A stretch of 64,000 bases of DNA from Tachypleus tridentatus. Its lineage: Eukaryota; Arthropoda; Merostomata; Xiphosura; Limulidae. The translations under genes were made by a program, and so were the position numbers. The DNA is taken from assembly GCF_004210375.1 (NCBI RefSeq), contig NC_134830.1, forward strand, positions 60,817,576 to 60,881,575, given 5' to 3'. The notes beneath the pieces are model-generated. The model was given only the letters and a program-made list of their open reading frames with translations, was not told the DNA's origin and searched no databases. Shown here piece after piece: positions 27,883 to 62,893 of the stretch (position 1 is the first letter of the stretch; every line of letters begins with the position of its first letter).

Positions 27883-27987
27883 TTAATTGGAAAATCCGTT
27901 ATCTTTGGATGCCGATTGTTGCTCCGTTGCCAATGGTAATAACGTGCATGGTGGATGTACATAATTAGGATTTTTCAAATCGACATT
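27883..27987 (-). CDS. spi: terminal exon, cytoplasmic tail of the Spitz-like ligand
   Basis: The acceptor is a strong pyrimidine tract ending cag (intron side 27988-27990), and the exon opens in phase 0. It encodes 34 residues (200-233), beginning NVDLKNPNYVHPP and ending QQSASKDNGFSN, then TAA at 27883-27885. The phase fits the CAG|GT donor of the 29067-29211 exon exactly. The sequence is polar, with an NPNY turn and a Ser/Lys-rich end. I see no similarity to the acidic cytoplasmic tail of Drosophila Spitz, but tails diverge fast in this family. The next frames stop at once, so this reading is the only long one. Skipping the previous exon would put a stop after three residues here. Confidence 0.68.
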   Translation of the reverse strand, partial: NVDLKNPNYVHPPCTLLPLATEQQSASKDNGFSN

Positions 27988-29066
27988 CTGTAATTGAGAA
28001 AAAAAAGATAGTTACTGTTTTTTTTTAATTAATTTCAAAGAGATTTTAATGTGTAATTACTAGCAAAAATAAAAAGCAATTATAGATTAAAATAAAGTTT
28101 GACAGTAGATAGTCTTAATGTAAAAACAAGGGTTGAAGAACACATATTTTGTAACGTAATTCTGAATATTTTTTAGAGTAACCAGTAATTTTAACTCTTT
28201 TTAAAAGTATTGCATTGTGTAGGAAAATTAAGCATTTTGTATCTTAAACAACATTAAAATATATATTTTTTAATATTGTACTCCTAATGAACACTGTGGG
28301 TCCATCTTTCGAAATCGCCAAGTTTCATCTTTTTTTAAAAAATGTTATTTGCGTATTAACAATTTAGTATTTGTTAAAATAATACATTATTTCCTAAAAT
28401 AAACGCTCCCTGAAGTTTTACAAATACACTAATATTATTTTATAGAAACTATTTCGAAATATAAAAAGTTTCGTCATTGTTACTCTCGATCAGATATATA
28501 ATTTTACCATGGCAACTTAATGCAAATGTTAACAAAAATTAATTCTATGTTTAAATGTTAATGGGGAAAAGTTAAAAATCATGCGCAGTTATCCACTTCA
28601 TCAGTATACTGATGCTCAGGAATAAAATTAGTTATTTTTTTAATAGTGCGATTTTTAAAAAGTGACGTAAATTAATAAATCGTCGCATTTGTTCTCCATT
28701 CCTAATTTAGCGGTGTAAGACTAGAGGGAAGGCAGCTAGTCATCATCACCTACCGCCAATTCTTGGGCTACTCTTTTACCAACGAATAGTGGGATTGACC
28801 GTCACATTATAACGCCCCCTCGGCTGAAAAGGCAAGCATGTTTGGTACGATCGGGATTCGAACCCGTGACCCTCGGATTACGAGTCGAACGCCTTAACCA
28901 GGTGGCTGTTGAGAGTTGGATGTACCATTTCTGAATTGCATATCAGTTCGTCATTAAATGCAACACACATGATCGAGATAAACCAGAAAAGGAAATAATA
29001 TATAGCATTTTCATTTGCAAAAAATAAAAATAAGGATAAAAATAAAAAAACTACTAAAAAAAGTAC
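27988..29066 (-). other. spi: intron between the two tail exons
   Basis: A 1.08-kb phase-0 intron. It contains the SINE at 28690-28910 and otherwise AT-rich DNA. Confidence 0.6.
28690..28910 (-). repeat. tRNA-derived SINE lacking its tail
   Basis: Begins in the core at cctaatttagcggtgtaaga and runs to the head (gattcgaacccgtgaccctc, gccttaaccaggtggctg). The 3' tail and the last bases of the 5' end are missing. It lies in an intron of the ligand gene, in sense with it. Confidence 0.88.
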
Positions 29067-29211
29067 CTGTAGACAATACAATATTTCAATACACGCACTA
29101 TCAGTATTACGTACTTCAGATATGGAACGTTGTGGGAGTGTTTGGTGTAATACAGGAATAACCAATGACCTCAGCACGTATTTTTCCATCATCTTCCTCT
29201 TTTGACGCCTC
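29067..29211 (-). CDS. spi: juxtamembrane/cytoplasmic exon of the Spitz-like ligand
   Basis: The acceptor is a T-rich tract ending aacag (29212-29213 AG). The first base completes the Arg codon left by the transmembrane exon, then 48 codons run without a stop to CAG and donor GTACTT (29066-29065 GT). It encodes residues 152-199. A strongly basic stop-transfer start (RRQKRKMMEKYVLR) directly follows the membrane helix, as expected for a type I protein. A neutral stretch with two Cys follows and ends IEILYCLQ. No known motif is recognised. The exon was found by searching the intron for a matching phase. Both phases and the basic start support it, but there is no family conservation to confirm it. 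Confidence 0.7.
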
Positions 29212-30581
29212 CTGTTAGAAAACTAGATTCGTTAACACGCACAGATGAACAGACTCACATTGTTAAATAGCATCACATTAAAAAAAAGCAAAAATGAAAA
29301 ACAAAAAGCCAATTCTGTAGTTAAAGTTATACTAAAATTTTTTTGCGGTATGAAACTAGGTGGGTGGAATTGGGATTTTCAACATGCGTACGTGTGAGTA
29401 ACAGGCAGGTCAGAAACCCCTAGGGCTCAGGTATGGCAGTCCATAATTTTGAACTCCTAACCAAAGGGAAGGTATACAGCACCACTAAAAATGTGAACGA
29501 AATCGAGCCATCTACTGATTTGTACAGAGTAAGACGTGTGTTTCAAACTTGTAGAGGTCGTTGCTGATTGAGGTACTAACAGTTTTAAACAATGGACTAA
29601 AGGTACATTAAAATTCAAGTGTACGCAGCGCACCGTGCGTATCACAGCACAAAGGTTCCGACAGACCACCCAGCCCGTGTGAATGAAGCCAAGAATGGAT
29701 ATTACGGCGATCAATCACGTTCAAGCCATGCCTGTTACAGCATACAAAGGCTTGCTACCTAAACCGCTAACTGCCCGATTTCACAAGTTAACTTGTAGAA
29801 GCACATTTTCGACCCCTATCGTCAGTTTAGGTGCCGTTCTTTAATAAAACTAGTGCTTTCTGCCACCGTAGATGGTACGTGAGGTAAAATGTTGAACTGC
29901 ATAATTTCGAGTGTTAATTATGTATATTCATCTGTTGAATGATTACATACCTGAAATAAAATGTGACGCCCGTATAGAATTCACTTTTCCCAAGTAAGAA
30001 TAACATACATATATAATGTTTACGTTACATTAAGAAGTCTGGTGCTAAGCAACTGTCCGATTCATATAACTGCAATATTTCAATTAATTATCAATAGACC
30101 TGTTTGTTTGTTTGTTTTTACCAATGGTGATTTTCGAAAAGTGTATTATACATATTTTTATCTGGAAATTTAACTGAGATTTTCGATCTCTGTGTGATTC
30201 GGAAAGGCGCAATGAAATATCTAGGATGTTCAGTAATTCAAATTTTGTTCAAATTCATGTTTTTTTAAAACAGTTATCTTAATGTTTTAGGAGGTTTAGG
30301 TTATTGTTTAACTGACAGTGTTATAAAACTTATATTTATTTGTTTAAAAACAAAATGTTTTCTTCAAAATTATATACACCGTGAAAACAAACAAAAACAA
30401 AAGAGTTAAATATTCTAAAGCTGTTATAATACTTGACTTTATTGAAAAACAAAACATTTCGTGAGCAGTTCTCTACCACCTTGAAATTTTGTATTTTGTC
30501 TATTAAATAATTTTAACTTTCACCATTCTAAATTTTATATATACAATGTTTATTAACAGAAATACTATGTGTAACACATAC
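29212..30581 (-). other. spi: intron 3' of the transmembrane exon
   Basis: A 1.37-kb phase-2 intron. A minus-strand open frame at 29457-29714 lies in it without usable splice phase. The stretch 29390-29760 is somewhat GC-richer than its surroundings, but I recognise nothing in it. Confidence 0.55.
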
Positions 30582-30687
30582 CTTAAACACATACAACATA
30601 CAATGCAGATGATAACAGTCACTATAGCCAGTGCTAGACCGCCTGCAATACTTGCTGTTTTACTCGTGATATCTCTGTCTTTGATGG
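30582..30687 (-). CDS. spi: transmembrane exon of the Spitz-like ligand
   Basis: The acceptor is ttgtttttctag (AG at 30689-30688) and the donor GTATGT begins at 30581. Two bases complete Ala116, then residues 117-150 follow, then AG of an Arg codon. The exon reads IKDRDITSKTASIAGG and then a 20-residue hydrophobic helix (133-150, rich in Ile/Val) ending CIVCCMCL. The KxASIAxG opening of the helix matches the luminal membrane entry of Drosophila Spitz (KASIASG). That segment is what makes it a Rhomboid-1 substrate. Four Cys at 143, 146, 147 and 149 near the cytosolic face are candidate S-acylation sites. This exon is one of the three that identify the gene. Confidence 0.93.
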
Positions 30688-31673
30688 CTAGAAAAACAAG
30701 AATAATATATAATCAGGCGCAATAAGATTATATTGTTGAACATTATATATTGAAATAACAACTTAAAACGTGCTTGAAGTTTCACATAATAAAACTAAAG
30801 AATAAACTGGAAATACGGATAACCACTACAATAGCTTTTCTAATTTAACTATTACGAGTTAAAATGTATTCAATAAAATAAGCTAAATTTTAACGTTGAT
30901 TTTTAATTAATAATGGTATTTTTAACTTGAAGGGTACCTTAGGCTAAACTTCCGTTAACGACGCTAAATCTCGACCAGAGCCATCTTTTATTTAGGCCTT
31001 TAAAATATATAGAAGGTAGCCAATCAGAAGCACCCGCTGCAATACTGACGATCACAGCTGTAACGCCACCATAGCTGAAAGAGCGAATCTTGTTCGTAAC
31101 ATATTACAGTTCGAACCTTGAGCCTTCTGAACTGCAGTACGTTACACACCTGGCTATGTCTAGCCCCATACTATTCAATGATAATAATATCTACAAATAT
31201 GCTCAGACATTCACTACATAAACAGACAACTAAGTTCTTATCGAGGAAGTAAACATTATCGGACGTGTGCATAAGTTTTTCAAGTAAACCCCTACAGAAA
31301 GACAAGCAAGAATCGGATAAGTCAGTTTTTCTAAATAAATAGGTATTGAACATCATCGGATAACACTGCACTGATAACATGTATTTGAGTAAGCCTTCCA
31401 CGCGCACACGTTGGGATGAGTCCTTACAAATACATAAACTAATAAATAATATGAACTTATAAAATACATAATTTTATAATATTAACGTACACTATCGCCA
31501 CAGACAGTTGCACTCAGATACGTTTCTACAAACTCACGAGCTTATGAATATTTTACTTCAAGTCTCGTGAAGACAGATGCCGTCAGAATTTCGCCCATTA
31601 TGTCTTGAGCATAATGCCAGTATTTAAAGAAAACCGATTTTACAAAGAAATTTAACTAAAGTAACATCCTTAC
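30688..31673 (-). other. spi: intron between EGF and transmembrane exons
   Basis: A 986-bp phase-1 intron. It contains a degenerate SINE head at about 31040-31168 and nothing else I can name. Confidence 0.7.
31040..31168 (-). repeat. degenerate SINE head and body fragment
   Basis: Shows ctgtaacgccaccatagctg, aaagagcgaatcttg, cagttcgaaccttgagcctt and acacacctggctatgtctag, corresponding to the head half of the main family in reverse. It is heavily mutated. Confidence 0.55.
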
Positions 31674-31732
31674 CATAAGACCCATCTAAGTCTTTAAACT
31701 CGCATCTTTGTCCCATATATCCATCTGCACAT
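31674..31732 (-). CDS. spi: EGF-domain exon 2 (third disulfide loop) of the Spitz-like ligand
   Basis: A 59-bp exon between a pyrimidine-tract acceptor (AG at 31734-31733) and donor GTAAGG (31673). One base completes Glu96, 19 codons give residues 97-115 (CADGYMGQRCEFKDLDGSY), and one base starts Ala116. It supplies the fifth and sixth Cys of the EGF fold and the GYMGQRCE signature. Drosophila Spitz reads GFMGQRCEYKEID at the same place. Gly103, Arg105 and the residue after Cys106 are positions that contact the EGF receptor in the family. Confidence 0.95.
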
Positions 31733-32134
31733 CTGCGAAAGAGAGAAAAACAACAAAAGTCAGTATTACGACCCGACGAGAACAGAGAATTTGTAAGGAG
31801 CTTTTACACTATTTACCTATACAAGCATGGAATGTAATACGTGTAAACCAGGTTATTTGAGTGAAAGTAAAACTTGTTATTATTATTTTTTGTTTTCCGT
31901 CGTGTGAACTGGAGTGGTGCACAATTTTAAAACAGTATAAAATTCTTTGGATAAAACTCCTGTTGCTTTGCACATCTCTTAAGTTTAAACACCATTTCTT
32001 AAGCAGAACGTCGGTACGGTGGTTTAAAAAAATACAACCACTATCTGGTTACTTAACCTGACAAAAGGAAGCAGTTATGAAAATCGTTTATTTAATCAAC
32101 AGGAAAGTTCGAAAACAGATATCTATCTACTTAC
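31733..32134 (-). other. spi: intron inside the EGF domain
   Basis: A 402-bp phase-2 intron between the fourth and fifth EGF cysteines. A plus-strand open frame (31861-32061) within it is a chance reading. Confidence 0.8.
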
Positions 32135-32309
32135 TCGCAGTTGTATAAAATAGATTCTCCTATTTTCACCGAGAAACATGTGGCTCCATTCAGACAGTAC
32201 CACTTAGCATAGGCTTCTGGACAAGCATAAGTTTGGAAGGTGATGTTTGGTCTTGAGGTGGTAGGCATAGTTGTCCTTGGCTTTGGTGTTGACCTGGACG
32301 AACAGGCTT
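32135..32309 (-). CDS. spi: EGF-domain exon 1 and linker of the Spitz-like ligand
   Basis: Acceptor AG at 32311-32310 and donor GTAAGT at 32134. Two bases complete Glu38, 57 codons give residues 39-95, and two bases start Glu96. It opens ACSSRSTPKPRTTMPTTS, then RPNITFQTY, then the first four EGF cysteines 67, 76, 82 and 95 with spacings 8, 5 and 12. Drosophila Spitz has the same order: EACSSR, a Pro/Thr linker, RPNITFPTYKCPE, and WYCLN before the third cysteine. Features: Cys40 would be the N-terminal residue after signal cleavage, and Asn59-Ile-Thr is a glycosylation sequon. The EGF cysteine spacing matches Spitz without a gap. Confidence 0.97.
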
Positions 32310-32527
32310 CTGTCTCGAAAATAAGATGGTGTAAAATTGATTAGATTCTTACATGAATGATTTCTTCAAAAGAAGTTTTAACGTAACTTTTTAAACATTT
32401 GTTTGTTTATTTAGATTAGATACAGTCATCGAAATTTGATAACTTTGAATACACTTTGACTTCATGTAAAAATCAGATCGGCAAAGTTACTTTGGTTATG
32501 CAATCATTGCAAAGTGTACCAAATGTG

Positions 32528-33246
32528 TTTGAACTACTTCTACCTCAAGATAAAACTAGAATAATAAATCTGTTCTGTAATGATAAAACTATACTGTCTG
32601 GTTTAGAACTACTTCTCTACCTCAAGATAAAAATAGAATAATAAATCTGTTCTGTAATGATAAAACTATACTGTCTGGTTTAGAACTACTTCTCTACCTC
32701 AAGATAAAAATAGAATAATAAATCTGTTCTGTAATGATAAAACTATACTGTCTGGTTTAGAACTACTTCTCTACCTCAAGATAAAAATAGAATAATAAAT
32801 CTGTTCTGTAATGATAAAACTATACTGTCTGGTTTAGAACTACTTCTCTACCTCAAGATAAAAATAGAATAATAAATCTGTTCTGTAATGATAAAACTAT
32901 ACTGTCTGGTTTAGAACTACTTCTCTACCTCAAGATAAAACTAGAATAATAAATCTGTTCTGTAATGATAAAACTATACTGTCTGGTTTAGAACTACTTC
33001 TTTACCTCAAGATAAAACTAGAATAATAAATCTGTTCTGTAATGATAAAACTATACTGTCTGGTTTAGAACTACTTCTCTACCTCAAGATAAAACTAGAA
33101 TAATAAATCTGTTCTGTAATGATAAAACTATACTGTCTGGTTTAGAACTACTTCTTTACCTCAAGATAAAACTAGAATAATAAATCTGTTCTGTAATGAT
33201 AAAACTAAACTGTCTGGTTTAGAACTACTTCTTTACCTCAAGATTA
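32528..33246. repeat. 77-bp tandem array, nine copies
   Basis: The word tgttctgtaatgataaaact recurs every 77 bp from 32571 to 33187 (nine occurrences, eight exact 77-bp steps). Copies are nearly identical. They differ at a few sites: an aaaa/aact variant in gataaaa.tagaata, a ctctac/ctttac variant, and one ataca to aaaca change in the last copy. The first copy lacks two bases. Such homogeneity implies recent expansion. It begins about 220 bp from the EGF exon, on the 5' side in gene terms. Confidence 0.95.
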
Positions 33247-33258
33247 CTTTGAAAACTA

Positions 33259-33506
33259 CAGGGTGTTTGGAAAGTCACTGTGCAGTTTGAAAGCAGCGAT
33301 AACAGCATTCATTCAGTCTATTTCAAGCCAGCAACTGATAGCGGTGTTTAGAAACAAAATAAGAAGGATCCAAGCCTGTATTGATGCCAACGGGGGTCAC
33401 TTTCAATATTGTTTATAATTGTCATTCATATCTACCTCTTGTATTCTATATTGAAACATGTCTGTTAATAAATATATAAGTGCACAGTGACTTTCCGAAC
33501 ACTCTA
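33259..33506. mobile_element. internally deleted Tc1/mariner-like element
   Basis: Terminal inverted repeats of about 26 bp (33259-33284 and 33481-33506) differ at three sites and are flanked by TA dinucleotides (33257-33258, 33507-33508), the target of the Tc1/mariner superfamily. Both ends read ggaaagtcactgtgca inside the repeat. The 248-bp copy keeps only the end of a transposase frame. It sits immediately beside the 77-bp array. Confidence 0.85.
33287..33418 (+). pseudogene. C-terminal remnant of a Tc1/mariner-type transposase
   Basis: An open frame of about 43 codons ends IQACIDANGGHFQYCL and a TAA at 33416-33418. A closing Cys-Ile-x-Ala-x-Gly-x-His-Phe motif just before the stop is characteristic of transposases of this superfamily. 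The catalytic DDE/D part is absent, so the copy cannot move on its own. Only the deleted remnant is present. Confidence 0.7.
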
Positions 33507-34264
33507 TAGAACAACACGTCTGTTTTGTAATGATAAAAACGAATTAGAAACTTTTTTTAGTTCCTCTAATATGCAATTTACTTCGCCATCTTTCTCCAAA
33601 AGGTGAATTTTATCAGTTAGAGCTGTCTCTTTTGTTACTTATTCAAATCAAAATTCTTGAATACTGTATAACGCTTGAATGGAAGTACTTTAGTACTGTG
33701 TACACCAGTGCACACTGAATGATCAGTTTCTTCGTACGTGTAATAGTGTGAATGAAACTACAGCTTCAACAAAGCAGTGGTACTGGAATTGTAAGTAACT
33801 GATCTTTCCCGTGTGTGACCATCATGCATGAAACTTTATTTTTTTTCAATATCCTGCAGATTAATTTTCTTACTCTGTTATTTAAACATCCGCTCTACCA
33901 CTCACACACGCGACTACCTCAAGGTAGAAAGGAAATAGCATGTGGAGCAGGCAGTATATTGCTTTAGCTGGCGCTTTGTTATGTTAAACTAACAATGCCC
34001 ATTAATGAAAATTAATAAATTTATCCAATGCTCAGAATCAAGGAGGAAGATGTCAATCGGATTTTATGGGAGGGACGAATATTCATCATAAATAATATAA
34101 CAATCAAATAAAACATTCCGTATACTATGATATAATCCATAAATTTACTGTCGACCATTTAAAGTATGAGGCTTCGGTGGGGTTCAGTATCCACTGTAGG
34201 GATTATGACAAGTGGATTAGACCAATATTAGCAAACAAAAAATAAAAGTGATTTGTTTGTTTTA

Positions 34265-34455
34265 TAATTTTTACGTACAATTACAAAGGGACTAGTTACG
34301 AATAGTAGTCCCTAATTCTGAACTGCCAGATTGGAGGTAAAAACAACTAGTCAAGAGCAAACATCGCCAATACATAGGATACTCTAGTCTGGCGAGATAG
34401 TGGGTGGATTTGGCCGCCATCATTATAACGTGTTCATTTCTCAAATGCGAAATAC
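34265..34455 (-). repeat. divergent SINE body
   Basis: Shows agtagtccctaattctgaac, ggaggtaaaaacaactagtc, atagtgggtggatttgg and cattataacgtg in the order of the main-family core, but strongly diverged. A tail-like tttgtttgttttataatttt precedes it. Confidence 0.5.
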
Positions 34456-34704
34456 AATTTTTTGCGGTAACAAAACGTTAAACCTCTAATACTTGAGTGC
34501 GATGAAGGTTTAATGCTTTGTCAATAAGCTACAAATCTTGTTGGATTAGCAGCGCAACGTCTTAACAAACATAGTTCAACTTTTCCTGTTGCTTCAGAAA
34601 AGACTCGTTTTCTTTCGAAACGTTCATTTTGGCAGTACATATGGAAATAATTAAAAACAAACAAACAATGCATTTGGAAATTCCCATGTAACAAAAACTG
34701 GCAT

Positions 34705-34800
34705 GTGTACAGCAGGTGAAAAGGCCAACCAGGGGTATCTAAACCCGGTTTCTTGCGTTATAAGTCTGTAGACATGCCGCTGTGCCACTACTGGGTGGGT
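34705..34800 (-). repeat. SINE family 3 fragment (head side)
   Basis: Reads caaccaggggtatctaaacc, cggtttcttgcgttataagt, ctgtagacatgccgctgtgc, cactactggg, which is the head of family 3 in reverse. Confidence 0.65.
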
Positions 34801-36000
34801 GGTTCATAGATGAAAAGCGTTAGTTACCTATAACCTAAAACAATTCGCACAGAATTGTTAAAAAGGCAGGACTATTTACTTTCTCGTAATAACATAATTC
34901 ATTCTTAACGATACTTTTGCCAAATTTGCTCATGTAAGCACTCTTGGATTTTAGTGGGGGGACTTAGTTGAGTGTATTTAATATAAGCATGGAAAATAAT
35001 ACATCTAATTGTACATTTACACATGTTTACAATTGTTTATGTACGTAAATTTTATTTTTTTTATATACCGAACGCAATGCTTGACGATATGATTTAGATC
35101 TAAAACTAAGACTGCGAAGTAGGCTGAACCTTGTGTGGTGTTTGTTACAATTCAGGTTGAAAATCACCATTTACAGCGGGGGTGCACAAATAACGACTGG
35201 ATGTAATTCTAGTGCCAAAGTTCTTTTTTTTTTGCTGTATATATGCATATAGAGAAATATTATTTCTTCAAGGATGTGTAATATATACGTGGATACGCGC
35301 GTATAACTGTAATGCATGTGGGTGTAAATGTATTTTGTATATTTCAAGTCTTTAGTGTTATCACGTGACTTCCTTTTTCTACCAGATATTTAATCAACAC
35401 TTTTCGCTGGAAACAGATCCAACGTAGTAAGATATGGAACTTATTTATTGGGTGAGTTTTGAACAACCCAGTCTTTTTTTCTCCGAATATCATAACGCTC
35501 CAAGAGTTATTTTTGTCATCAATAGAAGTTTGAGAATGTGTTTCTGTACAATCAGTTGTAAATCAGAGTCATATCAAAGCGAAAGATGACGTAACTCATT
35601 AATGTAAAAGAAGACAGTGAAACATGACGTATTCTGACTGAAAAAGGCTTGAATTAAAATGTAACTATTTAAAAACCTGAAGACTGGGGTGCTTGCTACC
35701 CACGGTCTCGGCATGTCACTGGGTGGGTTCTCTCGTCTGGGACTGCGTCAATAGCTCTTTTCACACTGTTTACGCCCTTGTCTGCTCATCACCACGGCAT
35801 GTAAAAAAGGTACACCCGCTTTCTAGATCCCACTCCAAATTTAGACACAAAGGTAAAATAATATGGTGCTCAAATAGACACAAATGTTTCTTGTATATTG
35901 ACCTGTTTTTCCCAATTCTTTAAACCCTAACTTCTGTTCACTAATGTAAAGAATGGGTGCTAACAATATTTATCTGTTAAAAAGACCATCTAATCACTCG

Positions 36001-36112
36001 CCCCATCGATGTGACAGCTTATGGATTTACAACACTAAAATCTGGGGTTCGATTCCCCAAGGTGGGCACAATAGATAGCCCAACGAGGCTTTATTTTAAA
36101 ACAAACAAATCT
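36001..36112 (+). repeat. SINE family 2 copy
   Basis: Shows gccccatcgatgtgacagct, ggatttacaacactaaaatc, ggggttcgattcccc, ggtgggcacaatagatagcc, gaggctttattttaaaacaa. The B box is intact. Its tail is (A/C)-rich like the main family rather than CA-rich. Confidence 0.75.
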
Positions 36113-36315
36113 AAACATTTAATTCTACCATTATATGAGAAGATTCTGAACCTCATATTAACAATCATCAACTTGACGAAATAAGATAGCTGATAATTTC
36201 AAATAGATTAACACAAGAGGTAATATAGAAATTAATTTCCACGTCCTCGACGAAAGGTAAAAATATTCCCTAAAACTTTTACACACCAACGCTTTCATTG
36301 TAAACTAGAATCACT

Positions 36316-36670
36316 GTATCTGAACTTTCAAAATGTGTTTGTTTATATATATGTATATACGAGTCGAGTGCCTTAACCACCTGGTCATGCGGGGCCGTGA
36401 AATATTAAGCAGTCAAATTATGAAACGTAGGATAAATTTTTAAACGAAATACTGAAATGTATATTCTAAAATCTAAAATAATATTTAAAAACGTATCTGA
36501 ACTTTTAAAATGTGTTTGTTTATATATATGTATATACGAGTCGAGTGCCTTAACCACCTGGCCATGCGGGGCCGTGAAATATTAAGCAGTCAAATTATGA
36601 AACGTAGGATAAATTTTTAAACGAAATACTGAAATGTATATTCTAAAATCTAAAATAATATTTAAAAACG
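36316..36670. repeat. 177-bp tandem duplication containing a SINE head
   Basis: The segment 36316-36492 is repeated at 36493-36670 with only a few differences (ctttcaaaatg/cttttaaaatg, ctggtcatg/ctggccatg). Each unit carries a 40-base SINE head fragment (cgagtcgagtgccttaacca, cctgg.catgcggggcc) at 36360-36396 and 36537-36573, preceded by an AT run. It is a recent local duplication. Confidence 0.93.
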
Positions 36671-37346
36671 TTTACCAGTAAAGTAAATATTAAAAATATT
36701 ATTTGTAGTATCTGTAATATTTTCAAAGGTAACATAAATCAAAAAGGGACTAGTATTCAGACGTGTATCCATGTTGTATGTTTCTGAAAGGAAAGTTGCA
36801 TAAACAGTGTTTTTATACCAGATTAACTGCCGTTCTATAAATCTTTAAGCACTTAGACTAAAAGTGCGAAAGACGCTCACCATCTAGTGGATACAATTGA
36901 AACTACTGCGCGAGAAGACGTATTGTTAAGTTTCCGTGACCAAATGTCTTTTAAACACCAATGAACGTGAAAACTGAATAAATTGTATTTTCTGTATTCA
37001 CTAGAGGGAGTTGGGAGGTCACGCTTGGGTAAGATTTGCCAGGTGACCACCACGTGCCTAGCAGGGTTCCCTCACCTGCTTAAGGCTAACAGTACTGACC
37101 AGTCAGAAAATTTGCCATCTGTTCTGTTATTCTCTACTGTTGATGTACTGTAAGTTTTCCCGGAATTGAATAAACAACATTCACTTTTAGCAGCTGCAGT
37201 AGCCAGTAGGCGTAGGAGAAAAGTAGCCCATAAAGATGTGTAATCGACTACCTGCATGGAAGAATTAACCAATCAAGTCTGTAAACACATCGCTGAAACG
37301 TGTAAACCACCATTCAGGGAGCGCGATAAATGAGCCAAGTAGATCA

Positions 37347-48470: not shown

Positions 48471-49516
48471 AGTTTTAAGCGAGAATCTAAAACTAAGGGC
48501 TACCTAATTCATGTTGGAAAGTAGTTTACGAAATTTCCTTGCATACGACATTTTCGAAATTTTTGCCTTCAAGGACATAAATCTTTACCCGGTCAAGAGA
48601 CCTTATCCCGCATAGAGCTGAACATGGTAATAAATAGTATTAAAAATGTCTCATCAACCCCGACGGAGAAACATACGTTTACACGTATAAGATTTGTTGT
48701 AAAATTATATAATATTTTCGTAAGAAGTCGGAATAAGCTTAGTGTCTCAAAGTGATTTAAGTTCTAATTTCGTGTTCGTACCATCATTTTTTTTAATATT
48801 AAGTCGCTAATTTCAATATTTTAGCTCTTCGTAGCTGTGCATAACTGGGGATTTTACGACCAATTTGCACAAACGTATGTTTAAAATGCTCTATAACTAT
48901 TCTTTAACCTACCATCTAATCAAATAATCATTTTTAAAGCTAGAGACGTCATGAGTGCCTTAAGTGTGAACTTCTTTACAGTAAAAGAAAAACGTTATTA
49001 TTGACTGTTCCCTGATATAATCCGGGTAAGTTGAGATTTCTTTTATTTGTTTGATTATTATCTATAATGTGTCTTCTCGCATCAGCGACTCTAAATGTAG
49101 TTTGAAGTTTTTCTTTGGAAAGTGAAAATAAAAAAAAACTTTTGAGGAGAAAAGTGCTGCTGGCACTAATGTGTTTATATCGTCCTTTCTGGCTTTAACC
49201 CTTGTCAAACAGTACGCTGGTCGTTCTGACCTTGTACTGGGTTTGTTTCGTGGATATAATTCTCTGCCAGGGCCAACTCGAGTAGCCATGACAGAAGTTC
49301 TTCGGAACTACATAAATGCACGATCCACTGCTTTCAGTGCCCTGCCGTCAAAGTGCCAGGTCGTTCACTTCCTTGGGAATGGACTGTGACAGAACTTCAC
49401 CTGGCGGTTAGCTCGAGACAAAGCACGCGCTACGTTTTGGCACCTGGAAAAGCACGAAACCTTCACGGTCTGCTAATACGAGAATCTGGCCGCTCGCTCT
49501 GTTATACAGCTTATAT

Positions 49517-51559: not shown

Positions 51560-51661
51560 CGGCTATCCTGGTGAGTAAAGATACAATCACAACAACCGTT
51601 AATAGATAAGAACACCAAGAGCTAGAAATCCGACAACGACTTTTCTTCAGACACTTCTGGC
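51560..51661 (-). CDS. spi: signal-peptide exon of the Spitz-like ligand
   Basis: The acceptor is a long T-rich tract ending atctag (AG at 51663-51662) and the donor is GTAAGT at 51559. Two bases complete Gly4, 33 codons give residues 5-37, and one base starts Glu38. It reads QKCLKKSRCRISSSW, then a hydrophobic core from Tyr22 to Leu33 (YLLTVVVIVSLL), then TRIA. Joined to the next exon this gives RIAEA|CSS, an Ala-x-Ala signal-peptidase site before Cys40. Drosophila Spitz has the same junction context (EACSS). The exon has no Met, so translation must begin upstream. It lies about 19 kb from the EGF exon. Confidence 0.88.
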
Positions 51662-53950: not shown

Positions 53951-54786
53951 ACTTCCACAAACTTTCCTCTGAATCACTGGAAGGATTTTAAAAGTTGACA
54001 GGAAGTGTAACTATCATTAACTCTACAGAACTACCAATCAACTACTTTGATTTATGCATTAGATAAAATGATTTATGCATTAGAATGCTTGTAGGTCCAT
54101 AGATTTGTTGGTTACAGGGGTCATGTAGCAGTATAAGTCACACGATTATTTCAGAAACAAACATACTATAAATAAATATTAAACTTAGTTCTCTTACTTA
54201 ATGCTAAGGTTCCTGTATATTTACTTTATTAATTGCCGCTAGAGTCCCTGTGTATTTCATCCTGTTAATTGTTTATATGGTCCCTCTGTATTTGATCCTA
54301 TTAACTGCTGTGAGGATTCCTATGTAATTTACATATAAACTGTGTGATTTCACTCAGTATTGTTGGTAAGTTCTTGGCACAAAATTATTTAATAATGTGA
54401 AAGAGTAGGTGCACTTCACACGTTATAGAATTGTATAAAAACTAGTAGATAACTTGGAAGAATAATAATTAATTGCTTTAAAACATAACTTCACAAAATG
54501 TTATTTATTTGGACCTAACAAGATATACTGAAGTGTTAAAAGTTCTTTGAGGAATCTATAACTAAACTCTAAAGACATTTTTGGCAAAATGAGCTTTGAG
54601 TTTCAGACATAGCTGAAAAACTGGAGTTCGTTATACATGAAACCAACAAAGAGAGCATATTATAAGGATTAGATACACTTCTATCTATCGTTTATCATAA
54701 CGATTCACCTTATTTTAATCTTGATACTAAATAATATTACACATACAAAATCAGAATGGTATTATTTAACTCAAACTGTTACAGAT

Positions 54787-55052
54787 TTGTTTGTTTGTTT
54801 TGAATTTTGCGTAAAGCTACACAAGGGTTATCTGCGCTCGTAGTAGTGTAAGACTAGAAGGAAGGCAGCTAGTTATCACCACCCACCGCCAACTCTTGGG
54901 CTACTCTTTTATCAACGAATAGTGGGATTGACTGTCACATTATAATACCCCCGCGAATAAAAAGGCGAACATGTTTGGTGTGGCGGGTATTCGAACCCGC
55001 GACCCTCAGATTACAAGTCGAATGCTCCTAACCACGTGGCCATGCCGGACCA
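54787..55052 (-). repeat. tRNA-derived SINE with target-site duplication
   Basis: A full-length reverse copy with a small deletion in the tail-side core. Flanks tgttacagat (54777-54786) and tgttatagat (55053-55062) match at 9 of 10 bases. Confidence 0.94.
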
Positions 55053-55499
55053 TGTTATAGATATATCTTGTATACCTCGAATAAAAATTTCCTGCACAGT
55101 TGGTTCTTTTGGAAATACCAGAGGGTCTCTCCGGTACCCAATACAACGCTAAGCTACGAGTTTTGAAGTTTAGGGGTTCTGGCTCACTCTTTTTTTTTCT
55201 TTTTCTCTCGTATACTTTAATCTCAAGCATAACGTTAGTAAAAGTTATTTTAAAACCAATTTATATATAATTTCAATTTCGTTGCAATATTCCCAGTATA
55301 AAATTTGCACGTACACTTATTAATTAATTCTTTTCGATACAAAAGGTATAATAATTGTTTAATACTGTATAATGTTCGCTAGTGTCTAAGAGTGTCCACG
55401 TTGGTAAGATATAAAACACGCTCTTCAAGTCTAAAACAGTGTTTTTGAATTTCCTTATTACATGTTTCGTTTAATCAGGATGCAACACCGTAGTTCCCT

Positions 55500-55625
55500 T
55501 TCTCCCAGCCTCCCTACCAGCAGTAAGTCTATGGATTAATACTGCTAACAATCGGGTTTCAATACCCACTGTGGGCAGAGCACGCATAGCCCATTATGTA
55601 GCTTTGTACGTAACAACCAGCAATA
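55500..55625 (+). repeat. SINE family 3 copy
   Basis: Reads cctccctaccagcagtaagt, ctatggattaatactgctaa, caatcgggtttcaataccca, ctgtgggcagagcacgcata, gcccattatgtagctttgta. Confidence 0.8.
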
Positions 55626-55904
55626 AATTAGAGGCTATAGACAGCGACATGGCATACCTACGCACTTATTTTAGAAATGAACTAAATATAGTTCATATGT
55701 TTTACAATTTGTAAACAACTAACTTTTGTTTTATTTCTCATCAAAATACCATTTATTTCGTTTTTTTAGAAAGATCTTAATTGATATTTGAATATTAGAT
55801 AAGCGATTTCATAAGAATAATACATTCTGATGATTTTTGAAATAAAGAAATATTACGATATTCTACCAAAATAATATTGTATTGGTTTCATATGCACAGA
55901 TATC

Positions 55905-56012
55905 AACCGTAAGGTTTTACAAAGCGGTGTGTTTGTGGTTCGATATCCATGGTGGGTAGAGCACAGATAACCCATCTTAAATACAGCTTAACTACAAAAA
56001 ACAAAACAAAAA
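55905..56012 (+). repeat. SINE family 3 fragment
   Basis: Reads tgtggttcgatatccatggt, gggtagagcacagataaccc, then atacagcttaactacaaaaa. The first part of the head is lost. Confidence 0.65.
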
Positions 56013-56814
56013 CCTTCCTAGAAAAACAATAACTTAATTTTTCAGGTAGAAAATAATAACGACTGAACATTCCTCTAATTGTATTTCTACGTAGACTGCG
56101 CAGAAAGTATAAATTCCAATGAAATTCCATTTCCTATACCCACAGAATAATTTCACGTATGGTTTAACGCTGGTTTGGATTGTTTAAAGGGAAATCCCCT
56201 TACAAATACCATATAGGACTTATTAACGCAATTGGAAAACGTGTTCTTTCTGAAGATAATGAACAAACATGTTATCACTGAAGTTCCACAGTCCTCATTT
56301 TACTATAAACTCTGTAAAGCTCTTGAACTGTTTTCCACAAATATATCCTATCAAAAACGTTTACCAAAAATTAACAATTTTATTCATGTCATTGCCTGTC
56401 TTCCTTATATTCTTATCCTCACTCTGGCTTTTTCCATTTATTTAAAAGTAGGACTAGAAATGTGCAGAACAATTCTTTTTTTTTGCTCGAACTAGTCGAA
56501 GAGAAATTTTGGCTAATAAACGCATCTTCAAAGTTAATGAAGTTTATAGAAGTGAAAGATATAAACCTATAATCTAGACTTTGAAAAAACAATTAAATGC
56601 ATAACGTTCAGATCTGAACGTTCGAAAGCTTTTCGTGATCAATGAACTTATACAGAATCGTCTCAGCGACATGCGTGGATAAAGATCTTAGCGTTATGAA
56701 ACAAACGTACAGTTCGAGTCTGCGCAAATCAACAATGGAATGGATCAACCAGCCCTTGGGCGAAAGAAAAGAGCAAGCGTAAGCATAGAGGGACTCACAG
56801 GTTCATTCAAAGAG

Positions 56815-57075
56815 TTTGTTTGTTACATTTCGCACAAACATATTATAAGATTATCTGCCGTAGCCGTCCGTAATTTTGTACTGATAGACTAGATGATAGA
56901 AAGCTAGCGAACAGTATCTACTGTCAAGTCAACTCTTGGTATTTAACCAACGTAACCACAGTACTAGAAAACGGAGCGCGATTTCGTATTTTTTTTTTTT
57001 TCCGGCAATGGGACGCGAAAATTGAACCTACAGATTTATAGTCCGAAACGTTAGCCATTGGACAACTCACGGCTT
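56815..57075 (-). repeat. very old SINE (main family)
   Basis: Reads gtttgtttgttacatttcgc, gattatctgccgtagccgtc, cgtaattttgtactgataga, tcaactcttggtatttaacc, then gggacgcgaaaattgaacct. Core order is kept, but there are many changes and an oligo-T insert. Confidence 0.65.
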
Positions 57076-57184
57076 TGATACAAAAAAAATCTTCGATGGA
57101 ATGAATTTTTGATAGAATATACATAAGAATAAAGCATGATATTGTATCGCGAACAATTATTATGATGTTATGTCACAGACGAAC

Positions 57185-57456
57185 GGCCCGGCATGGCCAA
57201 GCGTGTTAAGGCGTGCGACTCGTAATCCGAGTGTCGCAGGTTTGCACCGTCGCACAAAACATGCTCGCCCTTTCAGCCGTGGGGGCGTTATAATGTGACG
57301 GTCAACCCCACTATTCGTTGGTAAAAGTGTAGCCCAAGAGTCGGCGGTGGGTGGTGATGACGAGCTGCCTTCCCTCTAGTCTTACATTGCTAAGTTAGGG
57401 ACGGCTAGCGCAGATATTCCTCGTGTAGCTTTGTGCGAAATTCAAAAATAAACAAA
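57185..57456 (+). repeat. tRNA-derived SINE with target-site duplication
   Basis: Starts ggcccggcatggccaagcgt. The B box is damaged (ggtttgcaccgtcg, a deletion). The rest is well preserved. Flanks cacagacgaac (57174-57184) and cacagacaaac (57457-57467) match at 10 of 11 bases. Confidence 0.94.
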
Positions 57457-57669
57457 CACAGACAAACAGGGAGTGTGAAGTGGAATATATTCAAAGAGTA
57501 ATTGACTATTGTTATTCAACTTTCAACTGAGCTCGAATATTTGTGTACAACATGTGCAGCGATATTTGACAGCGATAAAAGTGCTTTTCTTAATAATTTT
57601 CTTACAAATGTGTCATAATTAAAAAATACAGCATTCTAAAGAACCAACAGAAAAAGATTGCTGTTGTCT

Positions 57670-57780
57670 AAGCGCAAACTACGCATTGGGTTAACCGTGT
57701 TTTTTTTCTATCATCTGGAATTGATCCCTGCATTTTAGCGTGAAGTCCGTAAACTTATCGCCTATCCATCGGAGGGACCT
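57670..57780 (-). repeat. diverged SINE, family 2 or 3
   Basis: Reads ctaagcgcaaactacgcatt, catctggaattgatccctgc, attttagcgtgaagtccgta, aacttatcgcctatccatcg, gagggac. Head words fit family 2, tail words fit family 3. Confidence 0.55.
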
Positions 57781-58734
57781 AAAAAAAGAGAACTACCTGG
57801 TATGAAAATACAGAGACGGTGTTTTTTCAACACGCTAAGACTAGTTATACGACAAAGGTGTAAAAACTGTTTAACAATATTTTCACACAACATAAATTTT
57901 ATTTATATTTAATTTTTTCTTATAAGAAGTACAGTGGAACTATTTTCGCAGCAAACATAGGTAGGTCGCTGTGTTAGAGGTAACAGTCAGTGACAGTCTG
58001 TATATTTGTAGAAAATAATAGCATTACGTCACTGAACTCCCCCACCTGCGCCTGCAGAAAAAAAGGGATGTCAGTTTCTCATAGGGTTTCAAAACTAACG
58101 TGCGCTATTTATATTTAAATATAACTCACACAAAACTCGTAAGTACTCCAAATAAGCGTAATAAATTAAAAATTAACATCCCAATGTGTCCTAAGCCTTA
58201 TCCCGCTGACTAAAAGGAAGGTACTCTCCTAATTTGGAAATTGGGTCTCAGACAAAAACAATGAAACGATTTTGTGTTATTTTCTCAGATATATGAGTTT
58301 GTGTGAGAATGAAGGTAAGACGAACCTTTGTATGCACACAACACAGGATACGGTTTGGTGATTAAAACTTTCAGAGTTGAGCAGCTTCCAAAATTCACCC
58401 ATTCGTAAAGTACGGGTCTCATAATCTGCGTTCAGTGAGCGAATAATGCATTTTACCTCCATAACTGGGAAACCTTGTCAATGTAGTGTTAGGGATATTT
58501 CTTAGAACATTGCTCCCAATTAACGTGAGGTTACTATAGCTTGTATGGCATGCACCCTAAAAATTATCTTCATGCAGTGTGTGTGCGCGTGCGTATTTAC
58601 CTCTGGATGAACATTGTCTTTGCCAAAATATTAATGTTAACCTCTTTTCATACGCTCACATAGATAATTTTTGAATTTCTTTGTTTGATCAGAATCTTCT
58701 CGAGTTGAAACTTTTAAGCCTCTTGCAGCTTTCT

Positions 58735-58838
58735 GATGAGCTTAAGGACGTATAGCGCTAAAAATCGGAGGTTCGATCCGCACGGTGAGCACGACACAAG
58801 CATCTAATTGTGCATCTTTGGGCCTTAAAAACGTAAAA
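58735..58838 (+). repeat. diverged SINE, family 2 or 3
   Basis: Reads acgtatagcgctaaaaatcg, gaggttcgatccgcacggtg, agcacgacacaagcatctaa, ttgtgcatctttgggcctta. Confidence 0.6.
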
Positions 58839-59011
58839 CCTTTTTTTAAAACTCAAATGCATAACTTAATGTAAGTTTTCGACAAATTAGGAAGTGTAGA
58901 AATATATTTGGTCATTCTCACCGAAAATTACGATCGTTAGTTCGGAAGTTGACTCTCTTTAAGAAGATTATTGTTTTAGTCTTACCAAGCATGCATCTGC
59001 GTTCATTTCGA

Positions 59012-59298
59012 TAGAGGCCCAGTATGGCCAGGTGGTTAAGGCATTCGACTCGTAATCTGAGGGTCGCGAGTTCGAATTCCTTTCGCACCAAACATGCTCG
59101 CCTTTTCAACCGTGGGGGCGTTATACTGTTACGGCCAATCTCACTATTTGTTGATAAAAGAGTAGCCCAAGAGTTGGCGGTGGGTGGTGATGACTAGCTA
59201 TCTTCCCTCTTGTCTTAAACTGCAAAATTAAGGACGGTTAGCGCATATAATCCTCGTATAGTTTTGTGCGAAATTAAAAAAAAACATAACAAACAAAA
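59012..59298 (+). repeat. tRNA-derived SINE, full length
   Basis: Starts aggcccagtatggccaggtg, with a B box gagttcgaattcc, full core and tail gtgcgaaattaaaaaaaaac. It accounts for the minus-strand open frame at 58918-59109. Confidence 0.92.
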
Positions 59299-59299
59299 T

Positions 59300-60110
59300 A
59301 AACAGTTCGAAAGAAATTGGATAAAGAAGAAATGCACCCTGCAAAATTTAACAAGGTGACAAAAACCACAGAAGGCGCTTAAATTGGGTAAACGTCAACG
59401 TGATGAAGGACACGTTACTGTTTAGAAAAGTACTTAAAAACGGGAAAACAATGGGAATGTTTGTGTAACGTCTACATTAGACACCCGATTTAGGGTTTAA
59501 ATTAGTCATCTCGATGTGCCACTGCTTTGTACGTGAACAAATAGCACTAGGAACCACCCGTATAGCCCCAGGACAGTCTTTCAACGCTCCGTCCAAGTGA
59601 TTGACCTCCTTCCTAATGAACTAATACATATGGGGTGTTCTATGTGTATAAGCGAAGGATACAACTGTGTACCCAATAAGCTCTTGTAGGATAGAGATCT
59701 CAAAACTAAAGGCCATAGTCACTATAATGAGGCACGACAGGGTATCAGTCGAATTATCGTTCGATGAAAACTGTGTTTATCCTTCTACCTATGTCAGCTT
59801 TGCACGTACGAACGAGCTCCCCCCCTCATAAGGAATGCAGGTGAGAGTTAATACGTCCCAGAACCCACCGACCGCGGAGCGCGGTGTGTGTGTTCATGTA
59901 CTAAAATTCAGCTTGGTAGATTGTGAACGCAAACGACGGGCGGTCAGAATTAGTAGAGGGGTTTGTAATTCTGATGGAGAGATAGGAAGACGGTCACTGT
60001 GAAGCGAAATATACTTTAGGACGCACATACACCAGAGTGCAGATGAAGATATTCACTGACAGTTAGGCTTAACAATCAGAGTTAATAGACAAACGAACTA
60101 AGAGTAAGAT
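59300..60110. other. non-repetitive intron stretch, GC-richer
   Basis: About 800 bp without SINE or recognisable exon, distinctly richer in G and C than its surroundings at 59480-60060. No open frame longer than about 60 codons and no splice-framed exon was found. It may be an unlisted repeat or a regulatory region; I cannot tell. Confidence 0.35.
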
Positions 60111-60111
60111 A

Positions 60112-60545
60112 AGAGTAGCCCTAAAGGTGTACCATGTAGTTTTCCCAGAAGGAATATTTAGCGTGGTGGTCCTAAGCGTATCCTAGTTAGTTGTTACAGA
60201 GTATATACGAGGGGTGGTGCCAGACCCACTTTGGTTAGTGTTCTACAGAAGACAATTTTTGAATAGTGGTTCCAAGCCCAGTATGTTTATTAAAAAAAAA
60301 AAAAAAAAAACAAAGAAAGGTGGAACAAGGCCCACACTAGCTAATTTTCCAGTAAAGTTTTCCTTGTTTGTTTCGTTTTAACGTAAAGGTTCACAATGGA
60401 CTGTCTGTGCTTTGTTCATCATGGGGAATCAAACACTGTAGTTTGGCATTGTTAAAACCATAAACTCACTGGGACCCAATGGAGAACATCCAGTGGAGAA
60501 AATGCCATTATTGGCCCCAAAACTATACTAGTTAGTTTAAGTATT
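60112..60545. repeat. degenerate ~55-bp minisatellite interrupted by a SINE
   Basis: Related units recur: gtggtggtcctaagc (60161), ggtggtgccagacccac (60213), gtggttccaagcccag (60265), ggtggaacaaggcccac (60318), and a damaged ttattggccccaaaac after the SINE. Between them are variants of gttagttttccagaagaaaa. An A19 run (60292-60310) and a family 3 SINE are inserted. Divergence indicates an old array. Confidence 0.6.
60364..60485 (-). repeat. SINE family 3 copy inside a minisatellite
   Basis: Reads ttgtttgtttcgttttaacg, taaaggttcacaatggactg, tctgtgctttgttcatcatg, gggaatcaaacactgtagtt, ccataaactcactgggaccc. Confidence 0.7.
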
Positions 60546-61836
60546 TTGAAAGAAAAATTTAACGCGCTTTAATTAAACAGATTTGAAAAAAACAAAATCA
60601 CATCATGTTTGGAAAGTTTGTTTGTTTGTTTTTTAGAAAGTCTTCCACTTTATTATTATTAGCTTAAAATTAAAAAAATAAATTTCAAAACAGAAAGTCG
60701 TTTGAATATTACTAAACTTACCGTCCGACTGTTTTAAATGTTTTGAATAGTCAAGAAATGCAAATACATCAAGAAAGGAAATAATAACATTTTAGTATTC
60801 TTGTGTTTTATTCTATGGGTTGATATTGTTGTTAGAAGATACTAAACTGTGACAAACATTTACACGTTCAGTTATGAATTGTAAGAACAATATTAGTCTA
60901 TTCAAACCATTACTGTTTTTTATTATTTATGGTATTTTTGGTTAATTGCATGTAGACTTTGTATAACAATAGCATGTGAATTATGAAGATTCTTGTTTCA
61001 AGTACTTATCGAAAGGGGAAGTCACAAAGTTAAGAGCTTGACTGAGAAGGGTCCACCTTTCTTCGAATGTGACTGAGCAAAGACTTTACGCAGTTCTATA
61101 AACATATTTCTTTTCAGTTTCTGTACATTATTATAACAACAACATGCAATACTTAAGCTTGTAAGGGTCTTAAAGAGCTGTTCATATTTTTAATACTATG
61201 AAACCAGAATAATGTTCAACTGTACATACACTCTTTAAGATGTGGTTGAGTCGTGTTTGTCAAATGTTCTTCAGACTCTGTACATGGAATTTTAGACTTG
61301 TGCAACATGTAACGAGCAAACGGTAATTAAAAGACACTTCTAGATCACAGCAAAGAACACTTCAACGAGCAGACTATTATACAAAAGCTATTCTATGGCA
61401 TTACAAAGTGCAACTAAGATAAAAGCTCCAGAGAATAGTTTAACAAACAAGATACAACATACTGACACTTTTAGAACACTGCAAAGTATGTTAAAACAAT
61501 AACAACACATTTGCACTTTTAAAACACTACATAATACTAATTTAACAAGTAAATAAAGTTAACAAACAAAAACATCTTGAGCACTTCGCGAAAATAATAG
61601 TTTGAAACATGAGAAAGGATTGCAAGGAAAACTTAATATGTAATGTAAAGTAAACAAATATCGCGCAGAATTAATTATCTCAAATCGCTCAAACATCCCA
61701 CAAGTTAAGGAATAAAGACCATTTAAAAACTGCTGAACACTGCGTTTAGTAGAAACGGAATGTGAATAAATGGACAATTAATAAACAGATCGAAAGTACG
61801 ATTCTGAATGTTGTTACGTACATTTCTAAACTGTAG

Positions 61837-62194
61837 TTTTTTTTTTTTTTTTTAATTTCGCGCAAAACTACTCAAGGGCTATCTGCGCTAGTCGTCCCTA
61901 ATTTAGCAGTGTAAGACTAGAGGAGGGAAGGCAGCTAGTCATCACCACCCATCGCCAACTCTTGGGCTACTCTTTTATCAATGAATAGTGGGATTGACCG
62001 TCACATTATAACGCCCCCACGGCTGGGAGGGCGAGCATGTTTGGTGCGACGGGGATTCGAACCCACCACCCTCAGATTACGAGTCGAACGCCTTAACCCA
62101 CCTGGCCATGCCGGACCAAAAGGTAAACATGTTTGGTGTCACGGGGATTCGAATCCGCGACCCTCAGATTACGACTACCTGGCCATGCCGGGCC
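61837..62194 (-). repeat. tRNA-derived SINE with two tandem tRNA-like heads
   Basis: A reverse copy. After the oligo-T/tail side and complete core comes one head (61995-62116, B-box side ggattcgaacccaccaccct), then 2 bases later a second head (62118-62194) with its own attcgaatccgcgaccctca and ending ggccatgccgggcc. The second head lacks about 17 bases before the end. The whole composite is flanked by aaa(c/t)tgtag (61828-61836 and 62195-62203), so both heads inserted together. Confidence 0.88.
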
Positions 62195-62704
62195 AAATTG
62201 TAGTAATAAATATTTTATGAACCAATTCATTTACTATTGAAACTCAGCATTTAGAAAAACTTAGTTTTTCACGTTATTTATATATGTATGAAGATGGAGA
62301 GTATATAGAGATAAAATTCTCCATGTGGAAAGTATATATAGAAATACATAACCATCGAAATAAATAATAAGTCATACTTATAATGAGGAATGTTTTGTTT
62401 TTGTTGCAGTACAGTAAAAGGCTTAAGAGTACGCTATACTTTACACTTAGAAAGAACAAATAATAACTAATTGTTTGTAAGTTACTTCTGTACTAATAAT
62501 CAAAACATGCCATTTTCTAATAATGTATTTCATTTATTTCGTTAGGGATTAAACTGGAAAGAAGTTCACCTTTAGAAAATGTGTTTTATAATCCTTCTTT
62601 GTGTAACAGAAAAATTAGGTTTTCTATCGGCTTGCTAAGTCGTAAATCCAGTAAGTAGAAAACAATAACTTTCCGAAGGTTGTGATGTGAAACAATACAC
62701 TTAC

Positions 62705-62893
62705 CATTCAACATTATACAAATCTGATGATAAAACCTTTGAAGTAATATCCTAACGTCATGCAAGCACTTGCAGTTACTGTCCAAGAGTGTGCTTGTTT
62801 GAAGAGGGTGAGATGTCCCTTTCATTCTGCAGTACGTTTTGCAAGAGTCGTCGCAATAGGTCATTAGCTCACGAGCAGGTTCAGAGCACGTGG
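62705..62893 (-). CDS. spi: start-codon exon of the Spitz-like ligand, with open cysteine-rich 5' reading
   Basis: Acceptor gtgtatttcag (AG at 62895-62894) and donor GTAAGT at 62704. The frame that continues into the signal-peptide exon is open through all 62 codons. In-frame ATGs lie at 62864-62862, 62825-62823 and 62714-62712. Starting at the last gives MLN|G and a normal-length signal peptide, which best fits Spitz. Starting at the first adds 50 residues with Cys in the pattern CxxxCxxxC...CxC ahead of the hydrophobic core. A short out-of-frame ORF starting at 62750 ends in a TAA that overlaps the last ATG (TAATG). Phase match and splice sites support the exon; which ATG is used is open. 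Confidence 0.65.

What the first reader, a model, noticed from the sequence alone, without database searches (positions are those of the whole stretch)
27883..62893. Complete-looking Spitz/TGF-alpha-type EGFR ligand gene, exons spread over 35 kb
Seven coding exons on the minus strand join in phase into a 233-residue type I membrane precursor. The linker and EGF region align with Drosophila Spitz without gaps: EACSSR, RPNITF.TY.CPE, WYCLN, SCEC/NCEC, GYMGQRCE and KxASIA. Exons this small and scattered are easily missed: the EGF exons are 175 and 59 bp, and a 19-kb intron separates them from the signal peptide.
Basis: partly seen in the sequence, partly recalled or inferred. Interest (0 to 1): 0.75.

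Follow-up and report, generated by a model that had tools for sequence, protein, structure and literature searches.

The report
One of four horseshoe-crab Spitz genes
[quoted passage not shown] three of the four, this one included, carry a changed residue at the site where the signal is likely cut free from the membrane.

Summary
Seven minus-strand exons with GT-AG introns join to a 282-residue protein, 100% identical to a public prediction, [quoted passage not shown]: already annotated, not named. The EGF domain matches Drosophila Spitz in the PDB (E = 2e-21; 33 of 56 identical, no gap).

New here: the genome holds four such loci. The EGF exons are held almost fixed (dN/dS 0.01-0.02 in the 4 of 6 pairs with finite dS). 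Three copies share a 60-70 residue leader that matches nothing else among 149 proteins compared. The same three (S, R, S) lack the hydrophobic P4 residue of the rhomboid cleavage motif, found in 135 of 135 scored other rows (8 of 143 not scored by the script) and in the fourth copy. Likely an intact Spitz ligand family in which three of four copies are processed differently. The gene is ordinary; the processing-site change is a testable lead.

The parts
62705..62909 (-). Exon 1, coding part (205 bp): ATG at 62909, 68-residue leader plus one base; donor GTAAGT
   Evidence: Open in frame, identical to P0001; homologous exon with Met at the same aligned place in the C6b and C12 copies
51560..51661 (-). 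Exon 2 (102 bp): internal signal sequence SYLLTVVVIVSLLTRIA
   Evidence: GT-AG, phase 1 on both sides; hydropathy peak at residues 78-107; corresponding exon in the C6b, C12 and C13 copies
32135..32309 (-). Exon 3 (175 bp): EACSSR, linker, first part of the EGF domain
   Evidence: PDB Spitz match; 87-92% aa identity to the exon at the three other loci
31674..31732 (-). Exon 4 (59 bp): second part of the EGF domain, CADGYMGQRCEFKDLDGSY
30582..30687 (-). Exon 5 (106 bp): juxtamembrane stretch and transmembrane helix, KTASIAGGLALAIVTVIICIVCC
30653..30664 (-). Codons of residues 189-192 (S-K-T-A): P4 to P1 of the expected rhomboid site; P4 is Ser instead of Leu/Ile/Val/Phe
   Evidence: motif defined in PMC2941825 (passages read)
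29115..29211 (-). Exon 6 (97 bp): basic cytoplasmic tail RRQKRKMMEKYVLRSLVIPVLHQT
   Evidence: Corresponding exon in the C6b and C12 copies
27883..27987 (-). Exon 7 (105 bp, incl. stop TAA): end of the tail
   Evidence: Identical to P0001; related exon candidate in C12 (28 residues at 39%, E = 0.008)
49309..49497 (-). Conserved non-coding element in intron 2 (189 bp), candidate enhancer
   Evidence: Whole-genome search reports four places: this one, C6b intron (79%, 189 bp), C12 intron and a second C12 place 62 kb upstream of C12 exon 1 (89% over 70 bp each)
35647..35864 (-). Conserved non-coding element in intron 2 (218 bp), candidate enhancer
   Evidence: Whole-genome search reports two places: this one and the C12 spitz locus (80%)

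Best explanation
This is an intact seven-exon gene, one of four paralogous loci found in the Tachypleus tridentatus genome, whose product is predicted to be a membrane-anchored Spitz-type ligand of the EGF receptor and is likely processed differently from the canonical fourth copy. Shown: exon structure, identity to a public predicted protein, EGF-domain homology to Spitz, strong purifying selection on the EGF exons, and a non-hydrophobic P4 residue at the expected rhomboid site in this copy and two others. Inferred steps: the ribosome starts at 62909; an internal signal sequence (residues about 85-104) takes the chain into the ER; signal peptidase cuts before Cys105 (EA|CSSR), which a Rasp-type acyltransferase would palmitoylate as in fly Spitz; the ligand waits as a type I membrane protein; it is released at the top of the TM helix and activates EGFR through the nearly unchanged EGF domain. 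In the C13 copy the release site has the full rhomboid motif (I at P4, A at P1, I at P2'). Here P4 is Ser, so rhomboid cleavage would be weaker or would shift to a second site deeper in the ASIAGG stretch, leaving this copy more membrane-bound or dependent on another protease.
For: Identity: P0001 100% over 282 aa on a contig of 169,746,934 bases, the length of C6. Homology: PDB Spitz 3ltf E = 2e-21, 3c9a 9e-20; Pfam EGF 25.5 bits, cut-off 21.5. Four loci: exon 3 at C6:60.85 Mb, C6:81.90 Mb, C12:119.52 Mb and C13:201.72 Mb with E from 9e-37 to 3e-29; the best match elsewhere is 0.0036. Selection: EGF exons dN/dS 0.01-0.02 in the 4 of 6 pairs where dS was finite, 93-97% aa identity in all 6, with dS 1.2-1.9 or saturated. 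Leader: open in three copies, all aligned bases in the same frame (201 of 201, 180 of 180, 180 of 180), dN/dS 0.25 and 0.31 in the two of three pairs with finite dS. P4: hydrophobic in 135 of 135 scored rows outside the six horseshoe-crab rows, S/R/S in C6a/C6b/C12, I in C13, L in Limulus P0004; of the 8 rows the script did not score, 6 have a hydrophobic P4 by eye and 2 lack the helix in their reading frame. The motif's importance (P4, P1, P2'; L135 and A138 in Spitz) is from PMC2941825, passages read.
Against: No expression data, no functional test. Third-position excess in the leader is significant in one of three pairs only (p = 0.008; others 0.13 and 0.18). The public C13 isoform X2 also begins well upstream of its signal sequence, so a long N-terminal stretch is not special to the three copies, only this sequence is. 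P1 Ala and P2' Ile/Val are kept in all four copies, and Gly follows, so cleavage may go on: in Spitz a P4 mutation (L135G) led the bacterial rhomboid AarA to use a second site; horseshoe-crab rhomboids were not examined. The EGFR copy-number search never got an answer.
Confidence: 0.8

Rival explanations
1. The gene is an ordinary Spitz and is cleaved normally: the P4 change is neutral because P1, P2' and the helix-breaking glycines suffice in these animals.
For: P1 Ala and P2' Ile/Val kept in all four copies; Spitz has a second usable site when P4 is mutated (PMC2941825, passages); TM exon dN/dS 0.24-0.27 in the 3 of 6 pairs with finite dS, so the exon is still under selection.
Against: P4 is hydrophobic in 135 of 135 scored other rows; three copies have lost it, with two different residues.
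Confidence: 0.4
2. Exon 1 upstream of 62714 is 5' untranslated sequence; translation starts at ATG 62714 and gives a 217-residue precursor with a normal short signal peptide.
For: ATG 62714 is in frame just before the donor. Third-position excess is not significant in two of three pairs. The C13 copy has a Met right before its signal sequence.
Against: C6b and C12 have no ATG at that place; the only in-frame ATG shared by all three copies aligns with 62909. The frame is open in all three; composition shuffles are open in 0.6-3% of trials for each. The public model starts at 62909.
Confidence: 0.2
3. The three divergent copies are decaying paralogues: still intact by chance, on the way to loss.
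For: Leader, signal, TM and tail exons evolve fast (28-59% aa identity between copies); P4 lost; a tail motif [RK][PM]F is absent in C6a, C6b and C12, though only 62 of 136 other rows have it.
Against: The EGF domain has dN/dS 0.01-0.02 after synonymous sites have nearly saturated; all splice sites and frames intact in three copies; intronic elements conserved between copies.
Confidence: 0.07
4. The four loci arose by separate local or segmental duplications, not by whole-genome duplication.
For: Two copies lie on one chromosome, C6, 21 Mb apart. I did not test flanking-gene synteny.
Against: Three chromosomes, full intron structure, shared intronic elements; the horseshoe-crab rows form one group (96/95) with C13 outside the rest; three rounds of genome duplication are reported for horseshoe crabs (PMC7815833, passages).
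Confidence: 0.15

Closest known systems
Drosophila Spitz (EGFR ligand; PDB 3ltf, 3c9a)
   Same: Six-Cys EGF domain, 33 of 56 residues identical without gap; Ala at P1 of the cleavage site; EACSSR after the signal sequence (fly residues recalled)
   Different: 60-70 residue leader before the signal sequence (fly N-terminus recalled); Ser instead of Leu at P4 of the cleavage site; fly tail not compared by any search
Tachypleus tridentatus LOC143252651 isoform X1 (P0001)
   Same: The same gene: 100% identical, 282 aa
   Different: Nothing; the record calls it 'uncharacterized protein'
Tachypleus tridentatus 'protein spitz-like' isoform X2 on C13 (P0005)
   Same: Nearly the same EGF domain and exon pattern in exons 3-5
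   Different: Another N-terminal stretch, with a Met (residue 55) right before the signal sequence; full rhomboid motif (I/A/I); tail with ERKPFSS as in scorpion and pseudoscorpion rows
Limulus polyphemus 'protein spitz-like' (P0004)
   Same: Tail 46% identical over 63 residues (E = 6e-13); groups with the C12 copy (92/97)
   Different: Keeps L at P4 and RPF in the tail; different annotated N-terminus

Membership tests
Spitz/TGF-alpha-type EGFR ligand | Single EGF domain, C-x8-C-x5-C-x12-C-x-C-x8-C, aligned to Spitz without gap | tested here: met
   (Cys at 132, 141, 147, 160, 162, 171)
Spitz/TGF-alpha-type EGFR ligand | Signal sequence followed at once by a Cys (EACSSR), the palmitoylation site in Spitz | tested here: met
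   Hydropathy peak 78-107 and Cys105; ACSSR invariant in all six horseshoe-crab rows. Cleavage and palmitoylation themselves not testable (PMC8060507 passages; that this Cys is the acylated residue is recalled)
Spitz/TGF-alpha-type EGFR ligand | Type I membrane precursor with one TM helix close after the EGF domain and a basic stop-transfer | tested here: met
   Hydropathy peak 187-219, with RRRQKRK at its end
Spitz/TGF-alpha-type EGFR ligand | Binds and activates EGFR | not testable with these tools
   Inferred from homology to Spitz
Canonical rhomboid substrate (P4/P1/P2' motif) | Small residue at P1, hydrophobic at P2' | tested here: met
   A192, I194
Canonical rhomboid substrate (P4/P1/P2' motif) | Hydrophobic, preferably large residue at P4 | tested here: not met
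   Ser189 here; Arg in C6b, Ser in C12; Ile in C13; L/I/V/F in 135 of 135 scored others. So it is not filed as a canonical rhomboid substrate
Whole-genome-duplication paralogue (ohnologue) | Conserved flanking genes at the paralogous loci | not tested
   No other gene seen by eye among the 72 stop-to-stop frames of 75 codons or more in the window (read without a domain search); wider flanks not fetched. Shared intronic elements only

The most novel reading that the evidence does not exclude
After genome duplication, horseshoe crabs kept one Spitz as the rhomboid-released signal and turned three copies into a second class of EGFR ligand: same EGF key, but a new leader, a changed tail and a disabled rhomboid site, so that they act as contact-dependent or differently released signals. 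This would be loss of the rhomboid switch in an arthropod Spitz lineage, probably more than once, since Limulus P0004 keeps the old residue.
Probability: 0.3. Interest if true: 0.7.

Novelty: new variant of a known kind. Interest (0 to 1): 0.4.

Why it matters
Rhomboid cleavage is a key control point of EGFR signalling in flies (PMC8060507, passages). A natural set of four paralogues with nearly the same EGF domain, where one keeps and three lose the P4 anchor of the cleavage site, would let one test by simple secretion assays whether animals have ever moved an EGFR ligand off the rhomboid pathway. It also gives a family name to an unnamed public gene and corrects its start as read by the first stage.

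Tried and rejected
Rejected: ATG 62761, which is out of frame with the donor. Considered: exon 1 as a separate small Cys-rich secreted gene. Rejected because two paralogues carry the same exon with the same donor and phase, and the public model joins it. Considered: the many DNA matches between the loci as synteny. Most are repeats (376 blastn rows of the window against C12, several positions hit many times); I filtered for matches unique on both sides (some repeats still pass) and tested two of them against the whole genome. Rfam at gathering scores: no RNA family in the window. AU test: neither the three Tachypleus copies without Limulus (p = 0.22) nor C6a+C6b as sisters (p = 0.50) is rejected, so the branching order inside the group of four is open. 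P0005 could not be threaded onto the fetched C13 stretch, although its exon 2 is there. Papers: searches touching Spitz or EGFR ligands with horseshoe crabs or chelicerates (20 of 33, 15 of 265 and 1 of 1 papers listed) showed no title on Spitz in horseshoe crabs; PMC7815833 has 0 occurrences of 'egf' and 'spitz' in its main text; PMC4132015 (passages) mentions a Spitz/Keren-like gene in a spider. No structure prediction was run.
Full report
What is there. The window is G000:C6:60817576-60881575 of a 2.17-Gb genome. It comes from a horseshoe crab: coagulogen exons pass Pfam's cut-off, which none of 14 control genomes does, and match PDB 1aoc. The best protein match to the gene is a Tachypleus tridentatus record on a contig of exactly C6's length. 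Seven exons on the minus strand, all with GT-AG introns, join in phase. Starting at ATG 62909 they give 282 residues, letter for letter the public protein P0001, 'uncharacterized protein LOC143252651 isoform X1'.

Family. Residues 126-181 match the Spitz EGF domain of PDB 3ltf with E = 2e-21, 33 of 56 identical, no gap; Pfam EGF is above its cut-off. A hydrophobic stretch at residues 78-107 covers EA|CSSR at its end, and a second at 187-219 runs into basic residues (RRRQKRK). In fly Spitz palmitoylation restricts diffusion and Rhomboid cleavage is needed for secretion (PMC8060507, passages); that the Cys after the signal peptide is the acylated residue is recalled.

Four copies. A search of the whole genome with 114 residues gave 21 matches at E <= 10; four places carry exon 3 with E from 9e-37 to 3e-29, and the best match outside these four loci is 0.0036. 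The loci are C6a (window), C6b (C6:81.87-81.90 Mb), C12 (119.50-119.53 Mb) and C13 (201.71-201.76 Mb). C6a, C6b and C12 have seven exons each, with exons 4, 5 and 6 of 59, 106 and 97 bp in all three, exon 2 of 102/102/99 bp and exon 3 of 175/175/184 bp. Of the two C13 isoforms, P0007 threads onto six exons and P0005 did not thread. In a tree of 25 chosen proteins (P0007 left out) the five horseshoe-crab rows group together (96/95), with C13 outside the other four (100/99); the root is a midpoint and the bootstrap had not settled. The order within the four is open. Three rounds of genome duplication are reported for horseshoe crabs (PMC7815833, passages), which fits; I did not test gene order.

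Selection. In the EGF exons (76-77 codons) aa identity is 93-97% in all six pairs, while dS is 1.2-1.9 in four and saturated in two; dN/dS is 0.01-0.02 in those four. Leader, signal, TM and tail exons evolve much faster (28-59% identity; leader, signal and tail compared among three copies only). The ligand is held, the rest of the precursor is not.

Leader. C6a, C6b and C12 share an open exon 1 ending at the same donor and phase, with a Met at the same aligned place. All aligned bases keep one frame. dN/dS is 0.25 and 0.31 in two pairs and undefined in the third. Third-position excess is significant in one pair of three (p = 0.008; 0.13, 0.18). Among 149 proteins the leader matches only the other two copies (E 3e-5 or better; all else 0.85 or worse). 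I take it as coding, not proven. Long stretches before the signal sequence also occur in the public C13 isoform and in many annotated insect and tick rows, with other sequences.

Cleavage site. Rhomboids need a small P1 and hydrophobic P4 and P2' (PMC2941825, passages). Two searches reported 336 and 279 proteins, of which the best 120 each were listed, 149 in all. Of the 8 unscored, 6 have a hydrophobic P4 by eye and 2 lack the helix. The horseshoe-crab rows read S (C6a), R (C6b), S (C12), I (C13, both isoforms) and L (Limulus P0004). Since P0004 groups with C12 (92/97; not conclusive), the loss probably happened more than once. The expected effect is weaker or shifted cleavage; in Spitz the L135G change sent AarA to a second site.

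Introns. Two elements in the 19-kb intron have few other matches in the genome: 49309-49497 at C6b, in the C12 intron and at a second C12 place 62 kb upstream of C12 exon 1, and 35647-35864 at C12 alone. The tool skips very common words, so these counts are what it reports, not proof of rarity. They are candidate enhancers; other unique matches were not tested for copy number.

Verdict. An ordinary gene correctly read by the first stage, with one point worth a bench test: three of four paralogues have lost a residue of the release site that every other scored row of the family keeps.

Noticed in passing
C12:119433559-119433630: A second, equally scoring copy of part of the 189-bp intron element lies 69 kb from the one in the C12 spitz intron, 62 kb upstream of C12 exon 1; a local duplication or an unpurged haplotype.
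   Followed up: no
window 32527-33244: 9.4 copies of a 77-bp tandem repeat, 98% matching, a little upstream of EGF exon 3 in gene direction.
   Followed up: no
window 36316-36671: A 177-bp unit repeated twice at 98%; dispersed repeats of about 270 bp recur across the window and the paralogous loci.
   Followed up: no
C12:119533449ff and 119533808-119533987: Two candidate last exons for the C12 copy: one resembles the end of Limulus P0004 (KFYRVSRNI), the other is used by the public isoform X2.
   Followed up: partly
tail, residues 230-240 (RSLVIPVLHQT), window exon 6: Resembles the tail of termite and cockroach rows (RSLAIPMIHQ; tail E = 0.001 for P0055, 0.045 for P0029), and Limulus has RPFVIPVL; an old tail motif may survive in part.
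   Followed up: partly
G000:C1:8591566, C1:9555009, C9:124949845, C10:143779352: Weaker EGF matches (E 0.004-0.02, 31-39% identity), possibly other EGF-domain proteins or EGFR ligands.
   Followed up: no
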